64,000 bases of DNA from Paramecium tetraurelia. Lineage: Eukaryota; Ciliophora; Oligohymenophorea; Peniculida; Parameciidae. How positions within the stretch are numbered: the first letter of the stretch is position 1; every line of letters begins with the position of its first letter. The position numbers were made by a program, and so were the translations under genes. The notes beneath the pieces were generated by a model, which had not been told where the DNA came from, made no database searches, and saw only the letters and a list, made by a program, of their open reading frames with translations. The stretch is taken from contig NW_001799034.1 in the NCBI RefSeq assembly GCF_000165425.1, positions 62,001 through 126,000 on the forward strand, read 5' to 3'. Positions 3,001-12,366 of this stretch are shown one piece after another.

Positions 3001-4864
3001 ATGCTATAGGGAATGAAAGGCTCAAAAGGTTGGATCCCAATAATATCCCAAATTGTAAATAACTACCTATTCTGATAGTTGGTGACTTCCAATCCCTCTT
3101 ACAGCAATTCAAGGTAATTCATTGCTAGCATCTCTCTTTTTGATGCTTTGATCTATCTGCTGGTGACTTTCTTGTAACTTGGCAAGTGGAAGTAACTTTT
3201 AATTAGACTGTACTTATTTTAGATCACTCTCTGTTCTAAGACTATTTTATAAATTCCCTTGAGAACTCGATAGATATCGTTGGGTCTGCCATGCAATTGA
3301 ATTTCTTGTTCAATCTGTTCTTCGGAGACAAATTCTTCTAATTTTTTGATTTCTGACATCTTGAGATTCTCCAACATCTAATCATTTGGAAATCTTTATT
3401 TATATAGATGATAGGGCGTTCTATTAATAGTCAATGCTCGGTCATTATCAATCTTGAATGCTTCTCTGAATTATTTGATTGGTTATTTGAGATACATAAG
3501 ATATGAGTAATATGCAGACCACATGGCGTCGGTTGGTCCATCAAATTCAATAATGTCTTCGGATCCTTCTTTGGAGAATAATTGCTGATTCAATTGTGAC
3601 AGATTCAATTCTCTGGCTATTTTTTTGAAGTTGATTTCTTAGAGTAACTCTTAGATTTTTGGTTTTAAATAGAGAAAGTTTTCTGAGAGTTATTCATTAG
3701 CATACTCTTCTGGATCTCTCCATAATCTATTGTTCAATCTCAAAGGCCGTAGATTTTTGTCCACAGGTTCCAAGGAGAGCAGGTCTGAGAATTGCAAGTA
3801 CAATTATTTAGTAATTTAATGTGTTTAGGCTACTATTCCCAAATTCTGGTCGCATTGATATAGGACAACGAAGATGATTGCCCCATTTTTAGATAGAAAC
3901 TGTCTCAAATTGAATCCAGTTTTAGATAATTGAATCATTACTATATGTCTAATAAGAGTGGTGAAGTCCTGTGTGTCATTTTTAGTACGAATCCACTCCT
4001 TTTTTGCATTGTCATATTGAAAGTAATTTCCCTTGGCCATTTTATACTTCGTTTTGCTCTTATTCAATTTGTCATAATCCAGATTGAAGATTTCCTTGAT
4101 TGCCTATAATTTATTGCCCTTAACGGTTTATTTAATAGCTCTTAGTTTATTATCGATTTTCATAGCAGCCAGAGCAAGTTTATCACTTTCACCTCCTGCA
4201 CGCATTAAGCCTTAAGTCTTCTTCTTCTTTTTGGACTTCAATTTCTCTTCGTCATCCTCGCTGTCCTAAACTATTTCTTCGATTGGAGCCTCATCATCAT
4301 CAAAGACTTAGGCCAACATAAACAAACTAGCCTCAATGGCTTTGAGAAAGACTAAGTTATCAATGACTTCAAAGTCTGTTCCACTATTTTTGAGATTGAA
4401 ACTATTCATACATAAAGTGATGGCTTCCATGGGAGACATCTAAGACACATATTCTACTTCGGGGGAATCTGGATTTGGGAAACTAGATTTAAATCTATAA
4501 ACAACCTTAAAACCACATCGCCCATATGATAATCGAATTCATCTACATATTCAAAACTACTCTTCATTTTGGTTATTCTCCCTTTTTCAGTTGATCTATG
4601 ATCTAAATATTCTAGAAATTCCTCATCCTCCTTCTCATCCAATTATCGACCCATAATCAATTTCAGATACAAATAATAAACTTTCGATAACTTCTCTGTA
4701 TATCTCACTCGATACTTTTATTCCTTCTGAGGTTCTTGCTCCTCATTCTATTTTTGCACATTGAAAATAGTCTCTATGAATTGATCATTCATCTAACCAG
4801 AAATCCGTTTTGTTCCCAGCTAGTCCAAATCATTGCTCTTACTTAATGGCAATGGGCTGTTCAT
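1..4864 (-). CDS. Anoctamin (TMEM16) family membrane protein with long C-terminal extension, partial
   Basis: Anoctamins are multi-pass membrane proteins acting as Ca2+-activated chloride channels or lipid scramblases. The family is recognised from the block around 1790-1990 (LTDYENHKTITEYE, matching the anoctamin LTDWENHRTQTEYE) and the block at 986-1210 (GVWNDVLEGLAYLSLVSNSG, then FGEIPYEI). Hydrophobic segments alternate through about 1000-2700. The start is the ATG at 4862-4864 (MNSPLPLSKS), and the N-terminal third is charged and presumably cytosolic. A clear 23-nt intron lies near 4473-4506 and another, about 36 nt, near 1745-1810. After the last membrane segment the frame does not meet TGA: it continues through a Q- and K-rich linker (about 720-780) into a lysine-rich region and off the left edge. 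It is open for about 240 codons beyond 721, so either the protein has a large cytosolic tail or an undetected intron hides a gene boundary. Confidence 0.85.
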
Positions 4865-7032: not shown

Positions 7033-8235
7033 TCATTGTTAATTAGTGACTAATAATAAGTTGATAATTTTTACTGAATATGGAGTTTGTTTCTTTGTTA
7101 CTAGATTTTTCAAGATCACCAAAGAAAATAGAAATACATTAGCCAAAACACCAAAAAATTACATTGGATAATTCGTATAATATTATAAATAGGAATGAGT
7201 TAGAACATATTATAACAATTCTTCTTAATAAAGAGGTTTATTTTCTATCTCAATTCCTATATTATATAATGTATGAGTATAGTCTGAGCAAGAGAATTTA
7301 TTATCAAATGAGCATGATGGTTATTGTGATATTGAATTAATGGGATCGCTTGAATTACTATTATTTTAGATTTCATTTTGAAATTAATTATTTAATATTT
7401 CTTTACTAATATGTTGAGTATGGTCATGATGATTATCATGATCGTGATTTAAATGCCCATTACTTGCATATTCATTTGCATGAGGGTCAATCAAAGTATT
7501 TTCTTAATCTTATTAAATTTCTGCTTATATTTAATCATCATTTTAACCATTATTATTTATTTCATTTTATTATTCTAATTCTCGAATTTCTGGATTTTGA
7601 TCATAATTCTCTTCCCTCAATTATTCTGGAATGATTTAAATATCTTCATTAACTTCTGAATCTAAATTTTGATTAGATATTTATTCTGACTATTAATTTA
7701 ATAATTCATCTAAATTCACAATTATTTCTTCATTTTGCTACGATTACTCCTATTCCTATTATTGGATATCATCTTAATTTTGAATATTTTCATTATTTTC
7801 AACTATTGGTACATTCTCTTAAACTTATAATTATTCAACATTTTCTTATATAATTTCAGCAGTATATATATTATCTTCTATTACAAAATATTCTGGATCT
7901 TTGCTTTTTGGTTATTCTTAATATTGTGGAATCTCATCTTAAACTTGGATTTACTCATCAGTTTATTAAATTGTTGCTTGGTCACTTTATTATGAATTGA
8001 TCTAATCTACTTAAATAGTGATGTCTTATTATTATGTTTCAAGCTATTCAGATTATTTCACTTCTTCTTAATCTTATATTTATTCTTCAATTGATTCAAA
8101 ATCATTTTAAGCATTTGCATCATTAAATTATTCAATTTAATCTCTCTTATATTAATCCCCCTTGAAGTGTTGTTTGATGATTAACCTACTTTGAGAGACT
8201 ATAAACATTAATACTACAAGTTGAAATAACTTCAT
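7033..8235 (-). CDS. Secretory single-pass membrane protein with Q/E-rich lumenal domain and His cluster
   Basis: A single uninterrupted 400-aa frame in which dozens of glutamines are written TAA or TAG. The N-terminus MKLFQLVVLMFIVSQS is a signal peptide. It is followed by about 220 residues of low-complexity Q, E, D and N sequence, a histidine cluster (HLNHDHDNHHDHTQH, around residues 260-275), a short region with CSFDNKFSCSDY, and one membrane span FFGVLANVFLFSLVILKNLV about 25 residues from the C-terminus. The layout predicts a type I protein with an acidic lumenal or extracellular part. The His cluster could bind metal; that is inference. I do not recognise a family. Confidence 0.8.
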
Positions 8236-8707
8236 AAAAATTGCTCGTAACACAATGGTTTATAATCTTTATTAGTAATATGAATTGTTAATTTTATAAT
8301 GTATGTAAAAATATCATTTTTTATTTTTTATGTTTGAGCACACTTATTTTACCATCTATCAAACAATATTGATCCTTCTACTACTCTTAACCTTGGTCAA
8401 GGTATTGAGTTTGGAAGGTTTCTCAATTCTTCCTACTTGTAATGTATTTATGAGAATGATAATTATTTTTATAAAGAACTCTAGTGTTTAAGTTTATCAT
8501 ATAACTAAAGGCTATTGTAAGATCATTGTGATTACTGTAGTTATTAGTACGATAGATCATATTAGATGGCTAGGATTAATATTAAAAAATATATAACTGA
8601 TCATCATATTGCGTTTGAAAAAATAATGGTTCGTATTAATAAGGGTTTGATAAGTGATTCTGAGTTTGAAGCAATTGTAATAATAAAAACATCTTAGGAA
8701 CTTCAAC
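8236..8707. other. Intergenic, divergent promoter region
   Basis: About 470 bases between two divergent genes. A stretch near 8625-8700 reads as an open frame with a possible 21-nt intron, but it is not in frame with the following gene and ends in TGA, so I do not call it. Confidence 0.45.
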
Positions 8708-9263
8708 ATGTATAGATACATCTCAGAACTTGGATTTAGAACACCAGCAATCATTAATTCTCTCAAAATATTCATTAGAGATTTCAAAGATGTGCCATCT
8801 GTCTCAGTAACCAGATTAAATTCCGAACAAATCTACTCTGCTCTTGAGATCCATTCTCTACCCTGGCAGCCATCAAGTGACTCTTCAAAGCTTGTCAAAG
8901 AATTCAAATTCAACTCATTCAAGGAAACTTTTGCATTCATGGGATCAATTTCCACAATCGCCGATGAAATGCATCGTAATATTTTAAAATCTATAATTAT
9001 TAGATTATCCAAAGTGGACATAAAAAGAAAACGTAGTTACTGTAGAGATAACAACACCTGAGTGTTCCGGAGTTTCTGTAAAAGACATTCTTTTGGCTTA
9101 CTCAATGGAATAATTGGCAAATGAAGTCTCATCTACCTAAATTGCAACTGTATGCGACGGGCCAAAGGTTATTGACACTTAAATACTACAAAATTGGAAT
9201 TCAAACTTCTCTAAGACTGAGGAAATGCTCCAAAGTTTTTAGAAGACTACAGCTCAACTTTGA
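8708..9263 (+). CDS. Pterin-4a-carbinolamine dehydratase-like protein, copy 1
   Basis: 175 aa after removing one 28-nt intron (8976-9003). The PCD/DCoH fold is recognised from LVKEFKFNSFKETFAFMGSI, ADEMHHYPKW, and TPECSGVSVKDILLAYSMEQ, matching the order helix, HHP loop, strand, GLT.KD. of the family. PCD recycles tetrahydrobiopterin for aromatic amino acid hydroxylases. In the canonical enzyme the active site uses an H-H-P pair and a third His just before the GG(L)T turn; here the pair reads H-Y-P and the third position is Pro, so classical activity is doubtful. The N-terminal 27 residues (MYRYISELGFRTPAII...) are basic and hydrophobic and could be a mitochondrial presequence. The next gene is a paralogue of equal length. 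Confidence 0.85.
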
Positions 9264-9673
9264 TTTTATACCCAATATATAATAATTTCTTTAGATTATT
9301 TACATAATTAATATAAGATACAATAGAAATTATTATAAAATTATATAATTATAATAATTTTTCAGTTTTTTCAACAACATAATTAACGCAACATAATATA
9401 ATTGTTATCTTTCGCAACGTGTTAAATCTGAACAGTATAAGTGAGAAGGTCTAGTTTAATACAAATGGACAGTGTATTTAGAGAAATGATTCCTTAAAAC
9501 TGAAAATTGATTTTTCTCTTAAAATGAGATTAATGGAGGGTAAGATGAATGTTGTTCAATTTAATTATAAATTGAAATTAAGAGATATTAAGATGACAAA
9601 TTATTAATTTAATTACATACTTAAAATTGATTTAAATACTTTAAAGAAAATCGTTTTAGTATTATTAAAATCT
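9264..9673. other. Intergenic between tandem PCD-like genes
   Basis: About 410 AT-rich bases with no convincing coding frame, presumably holding the promoter of the second copy. Confidence 0.5.
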
Positions 9674-10248
9674 ATGTACAGAAAGTTGACCTCTAATAGC
9701 AATCAAGCAATTGCCAATGTCTTAGGATTAAAGTTTTTGCTAAGAGACTATTCTGAGATTGCTTAGAAGCAATTCACAAAATTAAGTCAAGATGAGGTCA
9801 ACTAACTTTTGATCATCTAAGAGTTAGATGAGAATTGGAATTTGGTATTTAATTAAAATTGATGATAGAATGTAAATAGCTTGAGTAGAAAGTACTAGTT
9901 CTTGAAGTTTCAGGACTCGTTTAGTTTCATGAGCCAAATATCATAGATAGCCGATTAGATGAAACGTATTAATTATTAAAAAATTTAGATTATCCAAAAT
10001 GGTTCAATAAGAACGGACTTGTTTAAATGGATCTGATGAGTCCAGAGGCACAAGGAGTAACTTTTAAGGATGTTATTCTTGCTCACTCAGCTGAACACAT
10101 CGCTTAAGTGATCATGAGTTAGCCAAAGACTTCAATATTCGACAACTGTGACATTCACCTGGAGAATCTTATATCCTCCTGGAACAACAATTATTAGAGA
10201 ATTCAAGGACTCAACCATGTCTTTGAAAGATCTGTAAATTACATTTGA
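9674..10248 (+). CDS. Pterin-4a-carbinolamine dehydratase-like protein, copy 2
   Basis: 175 aa, exactly the length of copy 1, after removing introns of 24 nt (9845-9868) and 23 nt (9966-9988). Key segments are FQDSFSFMSQISQIADQM, KHYPKW, and SPEAQGVTFKDVILAHSAEH. The second intron interrupts the same histidine codon, in the same phase, as the single intron of copy 1, proving shared ancestry. The family's H-H-P reads H-Y-P with K before it, and the third active-site His is again Pro (TPEC in copy 1, SPEA here), so both copies share the same departures. A role as a structural or partner-binding DCoH-type protein, or a different reaction, is possible; this is inference. The first intron has no counterpart in copy 1. 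Confidence 0.82.
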
Positions 10249-10723
10249 TTAAATATAATGATAATTTCTTAAAAATTCATTATCAATTCAGTTTCCTCTG
10301 AAGAAGATATCGGAAGAACTACATAATATAAATCATCTCAATCAGATTTATGATTAGATTATGATGATATATATATTGGTGGTGTTTCTAGAAGATGAAA
10401 TGTTTGTAAAAATAAATTGGTTCATTTTTTTCGAAAATAATTAAAGCAATTAAATGCTAAAGGGCAATAATAATATATTTAAAATATTAAGTTATTGAGT
10501 GTTTATGCTTGTGTTGGATACATTTGCTATCTGATAAACCATTTACTTGTAAAGTAGATGCCTTAAGATTTGATAATTAAGTAAATTATGAGTGCAATCT
10601 CTTTTGTATGAGTATTTGATAAGCTGTGGTAATGGGATTATAGGAAAATCAAAGGAAATTTGTTGGATTTTGTAGATAAGATGTGTGGAAGCAACTTTCG
10701 ATTATTATTAGATTTAATATTTA
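10249..10723. other. Intergenic, AT-rich
   Basis: About 475 bases. An upstream exon carrying an organelle-targeting sequence for the following gene could hide here, but I could not join any ATG to it in frame. Confidence 0.4.
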
Positions 10724-12366
10724 ATGAAATAAGCTACGATTTTCTTGTCTGCAGCTTGTCCTTCAACAGATGTGCACTTGGCACGTGTGATGTCAACCAT
10801 TAAGGTAGCCAAACCAGATACTGAATTCCGTTTTGTTGGAATCGGAGGTCCTTAAATGGGTCATGAGGGATTAGAAACGATTGGAGTAGATTATCATGAA
10901 TTCCAATACAAACCATTCTTCCCCTTCAGAAATTTCTATAGATTGGCGTACACTCTATTGCTAAGTTAGTACTGAGAATGCAATGCATCCAGTCCATATG
11001 TACAAGAGATGGATCAATAAAAAAGCTTTTGAATAAACTTGATAAGTAATACTTCGAAATCGTTTAACATTACCAACCATCAGCATTCTTGAATTTCGAA
11101 AATGAATTCTTCATGATTCAATTCTACAAGAAATTAAGAGACTCCTATCGTCACTTCAATCGCATTTGTCCTCCTACATTCCAATATGGTTTGACCCATA
11201 AAGATTAACCTCAATATGGTTAAAAGTACGTAGATCATTGGTTCACCAGAACCCCATTGAGACAAGTACAATATCATTAATATCTAATCAAAGAGCAATT
11301 GGGAGAAATTCACGTTCCCTCACACATAAGTTGGACCAGATGGACTTTATAGAGCATTCAGACATCTCCTGTCCAACAGTCCTCAATACAAGGATTTAGT
11401 CACAAATGATACCATCTATCTCCCAGGAGGTGAATTCTTCAGATTTGATGACTTCCTTGCCGATAGAGTCAATGAATAAAGAAAGAAATATAGATAATAA
11501 TAAAACATTGGAGATCAGGAATTACTCATTTTTGTTGCAGGTGGTAATACATCCAAAGAAATACCATTCTGTCTCAAAACTGTAGCTGAGGGTATCTCAA
11601 GATTCCTCAAACTTGATGAAATGAAGAACTATCCAGCTGATCAAATCAAAATCATAGTGTCAGTCCCAGAGTTTGTTGAACACAAAGACAAAACCATCAA
11701 AGCAATCAATTCCTTAAAATGGCCTGCCAAAGTTATCCAAGTCGAAACTGAATCTGAAAAATTCTCAGCCCTTGCTGCCTCTGATATCGGTTTAGCTTGT
11801 AATGGTTAAATTGTTGCTGAATGTGCTGCATTCCAATTACCAACTGTAAACATTATATCACTATGCATATTAGATCATCCTTGATCCCAAACCCACTATC
11901 TAAATGTATTACACATCCCTCTACAATGGTATTGACAACGACCTCAATATCGCTTACAATGGAATCGTCTATCCGTAATTATCATCTATATTATAATTAG
12001 AGAATTGGTCATGTCCACAATCCCAAATAAAATTGCTTACTCTTTATTAGAACACTATCAAGATCCAAAACTCAGATATTTCTATGCTAAACAATATGCT
12101 CCCATCTTACAAAAGACCTTAGCCAAAAGCCAATCTTCAGTCCCAACAGAAATAGTATCTCATTCATCAAATATTTCTAGGCAAATAGATTCAATAGTGT
12201 CTAATTAACTGGCTACAGCTCGGCCTATCAAGTCATTGCCGATACAGTCTTGAAAGCAGCTCAAGTCTATGAACACATTCATCAATAAAGTAATTTTACT
12301 ACTTAGTAAAATGAAAACTTAAGAATTGAAGCTTTGTAAGGTTTGGGATGGGCTAAAGGATTATGA
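10724..12366 (+). CDS. Lipid-A-disaccharide synthase-like glycosyltransferase (LpxB, GT19)
   Basis: 492 aa on a six-intron model (22, 34, 28, 28, 26 and 26 nt; the first two are the least certain). The N-terminus MKQATIFLSAACPSTDVHLA and FRFVGIGGPQMGHEGLE match the LpxB start (GE.SGD.H.A and FVGIGGP.M...G). The C-terminal half has FVAGGNTSKEIPF, IIVSVPEF, AASDIGLACNGQIVAECAAF and PELVMSTIPNKIA, in the order expected for this GT-B enzyme. In bacteria LpxB joins two acylated glucosamines in lipid A synthesis; plants carry mitochondrial homologues. Ciliate-length introns and TAA/TAG glutamine codons show it is a resident nuclear gene, not bacterial contamination. No separate presequence is seen with this start. 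Substrate in a ciliate is unknown. Confidence 0.82.

What the first reader, a model, noticed from the sequence alone, without database searches (positions are those of the whole stretch)
8708..10248. Twin dehydratase-like genes of identical length that both lost the catalytic histidines
Two adjacent 175-aa PCD/DCoH-fold proteins share an intron inside the same His codon, same phase. In both, the family's H-H-P active-site pair reads H-Y-P and the third active-site His is Pro (TPEC/SPEA). Shared, conserved departures in diverged copies suggest selection for a different function, not decay.
Basis: partly seen in the sequence, partly recalled or inferred. Interest (0 to 1): 0.75.

Follow-up and report, generated by a model that had tools for sequence, protein, structure and literature searches.

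The report
Paramecium-like family of altered pterin dehydratases
Two neighbouring genes in a ciliate belong to a twelve-protein family that descends from an ordinary cofactor-recycling enzyme but has kept only one of its three active-site histidines while still being protected by selection, so it probably does a different, non-enzymatic job.

Summary
In detail: two adjacent 175-aa PCD/DCoH-fold genes (8708-9263, 9674-10248) share a phase-1 intron inside the same His codon, read H-Y-P for H-H-P, and have Pro at the third His. Corrections: one catalytic His (H61-equivalent) is kept, so two of three are lost. The intron is ancestral (16 of 16 intact family models in this genome). The shared Pro is not a conserved departure: its column is P, Q, S or N across the twelve relatives, S in g1's nearest copy and N in g2's. 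Conserved instead are Tyr/Phe at H62, Lys at E64 and Ser at a helix Ala (12 of 12 each). The twins are two branches of a well-supported 12-member clade spread by tandem and, by inference, whole-genome duplication. The genome also has a probable catalytic pair with the full triad (C178, C164) and an HHP/Asp pair (C89, C198). dN/dS of recent copies is 0.08-0.12 in the altered clade and 0.013 in the full-triad pair. Best reading: an old non-catalytic PCD-fold clade acting as oligomeric scaffold, assembly factor or regulatory subunit, analogous to Rubisco factor RAF2 but not nearest to it. No activity, partner or location was tested.

The parts
8708..9263 (+). Gene 1 (g1), PCD/DCoH-fold protein, 175 aa, two exons (8708-8975, 9004-9263 with stop)
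   Evidence: Splice model and translation under code 6; Pterin_4a 77.5 bits, residues 36-127; intact relatives C54 (92% identity) and C28 (77%)
8976..9003 (+). 28-nt intron splitting codon 90 (His, H61-equivalent) in phase 1
   Evidence: same column and phase in 16 of 16 family models
9006..9008 (+). g1 codon 91, Tyr where other PCDs have the second catalytic His (H62)
   Evidence: Y or F in 12 of 12 clade members, H in the 4 catalytic-type paralogues and in 80 of 80 bacterial relatives; H in 63 of 63 of a second set
9057..9059 (+). g1 codon 108, Pro where other PCDs have the third catalytic His (H79)
   Evidence: column is P (5), Q (4), S (2), N (1) in the altered clade, D in C89 and C198, H in C178, C164 and 80 of 80 bacteria
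9674..10248 (+). Gene 2 (g2), PCD/DCoH-fold protein, 175 aa, three exons (9674-9844, 9869-9965, 9989-10248 with stop)
   Evidence: Pterin_4a 76 bits, residues 36-126; intact copy C19b 63% identical
9845..9868 (+). 24-nt first intron of g2, phase 0, shared with C19b; a phase-0 intron two alignment columns away exists in C89, C198, C178, C164, C32 and C46
9966..9988 (+). 23-nt intron splitting codon 90 (His) of g2, phase 1
9991..9993 (+). g2 codon 91, Tyr at the H62 place
10042..10044 (+). g2 codon 108, Pro at the H79 place

Best explanation
The twins are two members of an old clade of altered PCD-fold proteins in a Paramecium-like ciliate. Shown: in this genome the PCD family splits into a catalytic-type branch (4 genes) and an altered branch (12 genes), all with a C-terminal extension; in the altered branch H62 is Tyr/Phe, E64 is Lys and a helix Ala is Ser, the H79 column varies freely, and the genes are under purifying selection. 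Inferred: the altered branch multiplied by tandem and whole-genome duplication; its proteins no longer do the dehydration step usefully, keep the PCD dimer/tetramer fold, and act through protein contacts, either as a scaffold or assembly factor like RAF2 or as regulatory subunits mixing with the catalytic PCD, possibly in an organelle. I put about 0.6 on non-catalytic action; which partner they bind is unknown.
For: Twelve altered members form one clade against the four catalytic-type members (100/99; same split 100/100). Y/F at H62, K at E64 and S at the helix Ala in 12 of 12 each, whereas the 4 catalytic-type paralogues and 80 of 80 bacterial relatives of set 1 have H, D/E and A. H79 free to vary: P, Q, S, N in the 12; 74% of 92 domain columns are less variable. 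Invariant in all 16: F68, F71, F75, F77, M78, H90, P92, W94, K116, D117, L120, A121 of the domain and W154, N155, N157 of the C-terminal extension. Purifying selection: dN/dS 0.079, 0.121, 0.100, 0.080 in four altered pairs. A catalytic role is covered elsewhere: C178 and C164 carry H-H-P and the third His, and the genome has aromatic amino acid hydroxylase matches on four contigs.
Against: No assay, localisation or partner. H61, an acidic residue at E57 and D88 are kept in 12 of 12 and could serve a residual or changed reaction. The diagnostic A and D/E are not universal among bacterial PCDs: in set 2 only 24 of 63 have A and 46 of 63 have D/E, with one K and one S. All within-ciliate comparison comes from this one genome. 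g1 and g2 are only 30% identical and may do different things. N-termini are only weakly presequence-like (6 of 16 lack acidic residues in the first 24, g1 does not).
Confidence: 0.6

Rival explanations
1. Reduced or stereospecific enzyme: the altered proteins still act on pterins using H61 and the acidic residue, perhaps on the 4a(R) isomer or another tetrahydropterin, with Tyr/Phe replacing H62 in substrate stacking.
For: H61, D/E at E57 and D88 each 12 of 12; H62 replaced only by aromatic residues (9 Y, 3 F). That H61 and H79 serve different stereoisomers and H62 mainly binding is recalled (work on rat DCoH by Rebrin and colleagues), not read here.
Against: H79 column drifts freely; the aromatic residue of the NVYN motif is lost in 10 of 12; a full-triad pair exists to do the reaction.
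Confidence: 0.22
2. Relaxed duplicates: extra PCD copies simply lost catalytic residues after duplication and are on the way out.
For: One copy (C19a) is degenerate; g2 is missing from C54, where only a 59-base stretch like the end of g2 remains, and no convincing trace was seen on C28.
Against: dN/dS 0.08-0.12 in four altered pairs; 12 intact models; residues K93 and S82 invariant in the 12.
Confidence: 0.08
3. Ordinary active PCDs in which a different His takes over.
For: g1 has an extra His (H89) next to H90; g2 has His at 122 and 126.
Against: Position 89 is His only in g1, C54 and C28 and K, Q, E, N, S or D in the others; no His lies within 10 residues of position 108 in g1 or g2.
Confidence: 0.05

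Closest known systems
PCD/DCoH (pterin-4a-carbinolamine dehydratase, Pfam PF01329; PDB 1dch, 4c45, 2v6u)
   Same: Domain match of 77.5 and 76 bits; H61, P63, W65, D88 kept
   Different: H62 is Tyr, H79 is Pro; about 35 residues before and 48 after the Pfam domain
RAF2/acRAF, Rubisco assembly factor with an inactive PCD domain (PDB 4low; Feiz 2014 and Wheatley 2014 as described in PMC5859369, passages seen)
   Same: PCD fold without PCD activity used in protein assembly, if our inference holds
   Different: Sequence nearer to true PCDs: profile E 0.001 for 4low against 6.3e-25 for 2v6u; no Rubisco is expected in a ciliate (general knowledge, not searched)
DCoH as coactivator of HNF-1 (PDB 1f93)
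   Same: A second, non-enzymatic role of the same fold
   Different: DCoH keeps the catalytic histidines (alignment); no HNF-1-like partner was looked for here

Membership tests
PCD fold family PF01329 | Match above curated cut-off over the domain | tested here: met
   77.5 and 76 bits against 26
Catalytic PCD | H61 present | tested here: met
   H90 in both
Catalytic PCD | H62 present (Asn also allowed in the motif of Naponelli 2008; motif recalled, paper not held) | tested here: not met
   Tyr in both
Catalytic PCD | H79 present (Trp also allowed, recalled) | tested here: not met
   Pro in both
Catalytic PCD | Dehydratase activity | not testable with these tools
   needs purified protein
RAF2 | Closest sequence kinship to RAF2/acRAF | tested here: not met
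   4low is 12th of 13 matches in the profile search, last of 12 with g1 alone and not among 12 with g2 alone
RAF2 | Promotes Rubisco assembly | not tested
   no Rubisco search was made
Mitochondrial protein | N-terminal targeting signal | tested here: inconclusive
   first 24 residues of g2, C19b, C89, C198, C178, C164 lack D/E and hold 4-5 K/R; the other 10, g1 among them, hold 1-2 acidic residues; no trained predictor was run

The most novel reading that the evidence does not exclude
The ciliate runs a mixed PCD system in which several different non-catalytic, Tyr/Phe-bearing PCD paralogues form hetero-oligomers with each other or with the catalytic subunit, helped by the C-terminal WNxN extension that all 16 share, giving a regulated or organelle-bound complex of a kind not known to me elsewhere; the tandem neighbours g1 and g2 would be partners.
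Probability: 0.17. Interest if true: 0.6.

Novelty: new variant of a known kind. Interest (0 to 1): 0.42.

Why it matters
Non-catalytic use of the PCD fold is known to me from few cases (RAF2; DCoH as coactivator). A twelve-member, selection-maintained altered clade beside an intact full-triad pair in one genome would be a good system to learn how the fold is turned from enzyme to scaffold. It also warns that annotation by domain match alone would name these genes dehydratases.

Tried and rejected
Rejected: Pro at the third His as a conserved departure. Rejected: shared intron and equal length as evidence special to the twins. Disfavoured: decay. Rejected: closest kinship to RAF2.

Tried without result: two scans of viral contigs gave 4 and 25 pattern matches, none confirmed as a relative. 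Nine paper searches. PCD with Paramecium, with Tetrahymena and with pseudoenzyme gave 0 papers each; Tetrahymena with pterin-4 and mitochondri gave 0; PCD with ciliate gave 2, each holding each term once, listing only. Broader searches gave 38, 49, 19 and 2 papers, of which 20, 10, 8 and 2 were listed; in the listed titles and abstract starts I saw nothing on ciliate PCD paralogues. Passages were seen in PMC3223725, PMC5859369 and PMC2653193; no paper was read whole, and Naponelli 2008 is not held. Structure prediction of g1 exon 2 alone (85 aa, single sequence) had mean pLDDT 43.7 and was not used. Solved structures: the profile matched chains labelled PCD/DCoH, two labelled HNF-1-alpha, acRAF and one acetyltransferase at E 0.22, 13 in all; I did not check that ciliate mitochondrial complexes are in that copy, so this says little about such complexes. 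Searches of the own genome for GTP cyclohydrolase I, PTPS and molybdenum oxidoreductase found nothing, with controls ringing in 11, 9 and 9 of 14 genomes; an exon-by-exon search can miss a split gene.

Dropped before counts: C19a (degenerate) and C36 (distant, weak) were left out of the 16 models. Bacterial set 1 is the best 80 of 534 confirmed relatives, itself a capped list, ranked by likeness to our profile; one of its two search patterns fixes H61, P63 and W65, allows H, Y or F at H62 and K, E or D at E64, so only H62 and H79 are free tests there. The tree used 16 of those 80. Set 2 is 63 loci (counted): the best-scoring 30 of 64 matches in one phylum, 30 of 49 in another, and five handles, two of which are among the 60; five of the 63 come from the same genomes and single matches as loci of set 1. 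Both sets lean to canonical PCDs. A regex count of the third His mis-read 13 rows and missed 3; it was replaced by the column count.

Full report
What is there. The window lies in a 69-Mb, 231-contig genome (G000, contig C81). Code 6 (TAA, TAG = Gln) and 20-29-nt introns suggest a Paramecium, perhaps of the aurelia group; this name is inferred from recall, not shown. Gene 1 (8708-9263) and gene 2 (9674-10248) each encode 175 aa and match Pfam Pterin_4a with 77.5 and 76 bits. Solved PCDs align over about residues 36-129. In both genes the first His of the pair (H90, H61 in rat numbering, numbering recalled) is present, the second is Tyr91 and the third is Pro108.

The family in this genome. A Pfam search found 22 exon matches on 14 contigs; a search with g2 found g2 itself and C19b as well. 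Splice models gave 16 intact genes of 173-178 aa; C19a is degenerate and C36 is a distant PCD-like protein, both left out. All 16 carry the phase-1 intron in the His-90 codon at the same alignment column, so the shared intron is ancestral. All 16 share a C-terminal extension with invariant W154, N155, N157, gapped in 80 of 80 bacterial relatives.

Which residues are conserved. At H62: H in C178, C164, C89, C198; Y (9) or F (3) in the other 12. At H79: H in C178 and C164, D in C89 and C198, and P (5), Q (4), S (2), N (1) in the 12. H62 and H79 are His in 80 of 80 bacteria of set 1 and 63 of 63 of set 2 (five of these repeat set 1, and both sets lean to canonical PCDs). Within the 12, 29% of 92 domain columns are less variable than the H62 column and 74% less variable than the H79 column; over the 16 the tree needs 2 changes for the first and 7 for the second. 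Two further changes mark the clade: D/E64 to K and a helix Ala to Ser, each 12 of 12 against 0 of 4 catalytic-type paralogues and 0 of 80 in set 1. Set 2 tempers this: there A is found in only 24 of 63 (G 20, V 17, S 1, T 1) and D/E in 46 of 63 (K 1), so both sites tolerate change elsewhere.

History. The 12 are one clade (100/99 with 16 bacteria in the tree; split 100/100 among the 16). The order of branches inside it is not settled. In one search one bacterial row with a long branch (L099) fell on the ciliate side with weak support. Among the stretches fetched, the window region is collinear with C54, C28 and C19, and its left part with C21, as expected from successive whole-genome duplications (inference). 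g1 is intact on C81, C54 and C28 and broken on C19; g2 is intact on C81 and C19. On C54 a 59-base stretch, 81% identical to the end of g2 (E 3e-10), lies between g1 and the next gene; no convincing trace was seen on C28. The pair is therefore older than the duplication that separates C81 from C19. A second tandem pair (a and b on C193 and C204) lies elsewhere.

Selection. Nei-Gojobori dN/dS: g1/C54 0.079, C193a/C204a 0.121, C193b/C204b 0.100, C32/C46 0.080, C89/C198 0.023, C178/C164 0.013; C54/C28 0.056 at near-saturated dS. For g1/C28 and g2/C19b synonymous change is saturated (dN 0.142 and 0.249). The altered genes are constrained, but less than the catalytic-type ones.

Pathway setting. The genome has aromatic amino acid hydroxylase matches on four contigs; these enzymes use PCD for cofactor recycling (general knowledge). 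No GTP cyclohydrolase I, PTPS or molybdenum oxidoreductase was detected, so pterin may be salvaged; split genes could have been missed. C178/C164 are the natural candidates for the enzyme (inference).

Mechanism. Shown: domain membership, loss of two of three histidines, shared ancestry, purifying selection, clade-specific residues. Inferred: that losing H79 and H62 abolishes useful dehydration (role of each His recalled from rat DCoH work, not read), and that the remaining conserved features serve protein contacts. RAF2 gives a precedent: an inactive PCD domain needed for Rubisco biogenesis, recombinant protein migrating as dimers and tetramers (passages of PMC5859369). The altered clade is not nearest to RAF2 by sequence. 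A residual or changed enzyme remains possible because H61, the acidic residue and D88 are kept. Mitochondrial location is a guess: 6 of 16 N-termini look presequence-like, g2 among them and g1 not.

Verdict. Observation right; interpretation right in direction but resting partly on features that are ancestral (intron, length) or unconstrained (Pro). The interesting unit is the 12-member clade, not the twin.

Noticed in passing
window ~10613-12200, +: Gene resembling lipid-A-disaccharide synthase (LpxB, 21.8 bits on one open frame, just under the 22.6 cut-off) directly downstream; similar sequence on C54 and partly on C28.
   Followed up: partly
L009 (C193) 3070-3093 and L010 (C204) 3086-3109: The His-codon intron is 24 nt, in frame and free of stops under code 6 in both copies, so unspliced mRNA would read through with 8 extra residues.
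   Followed up: partly
L013 (C19:127500-133000), about 2418-2945, - strand: Degenerate copy of g1 with in-frame stops.
   Followed up: partly
L021 (C36:203000-208500): Distant PCD-like protein without the H-H-P motif, weak match to Pterin_4a (25.3 bits, 27.7 with neighbours; model).
   Followed up: no
L011, L012 (C89, C198): Pair with H-H-P intact but Asp at the third His, slowly evolving (dN/dS 0.023).
   Followed up: partly
own genome, contigs C30, C177, C69, C3: Aromatic amino acid hydroxylase matches on four contigs, with no GTP cyclohydrolase I or PTPS detected.
   Followed up: partly
window 7036-8313, -: Open frame of 426 aa rich in Gln (17%) with no Pfam match at E 0.01.
   Followed up: no
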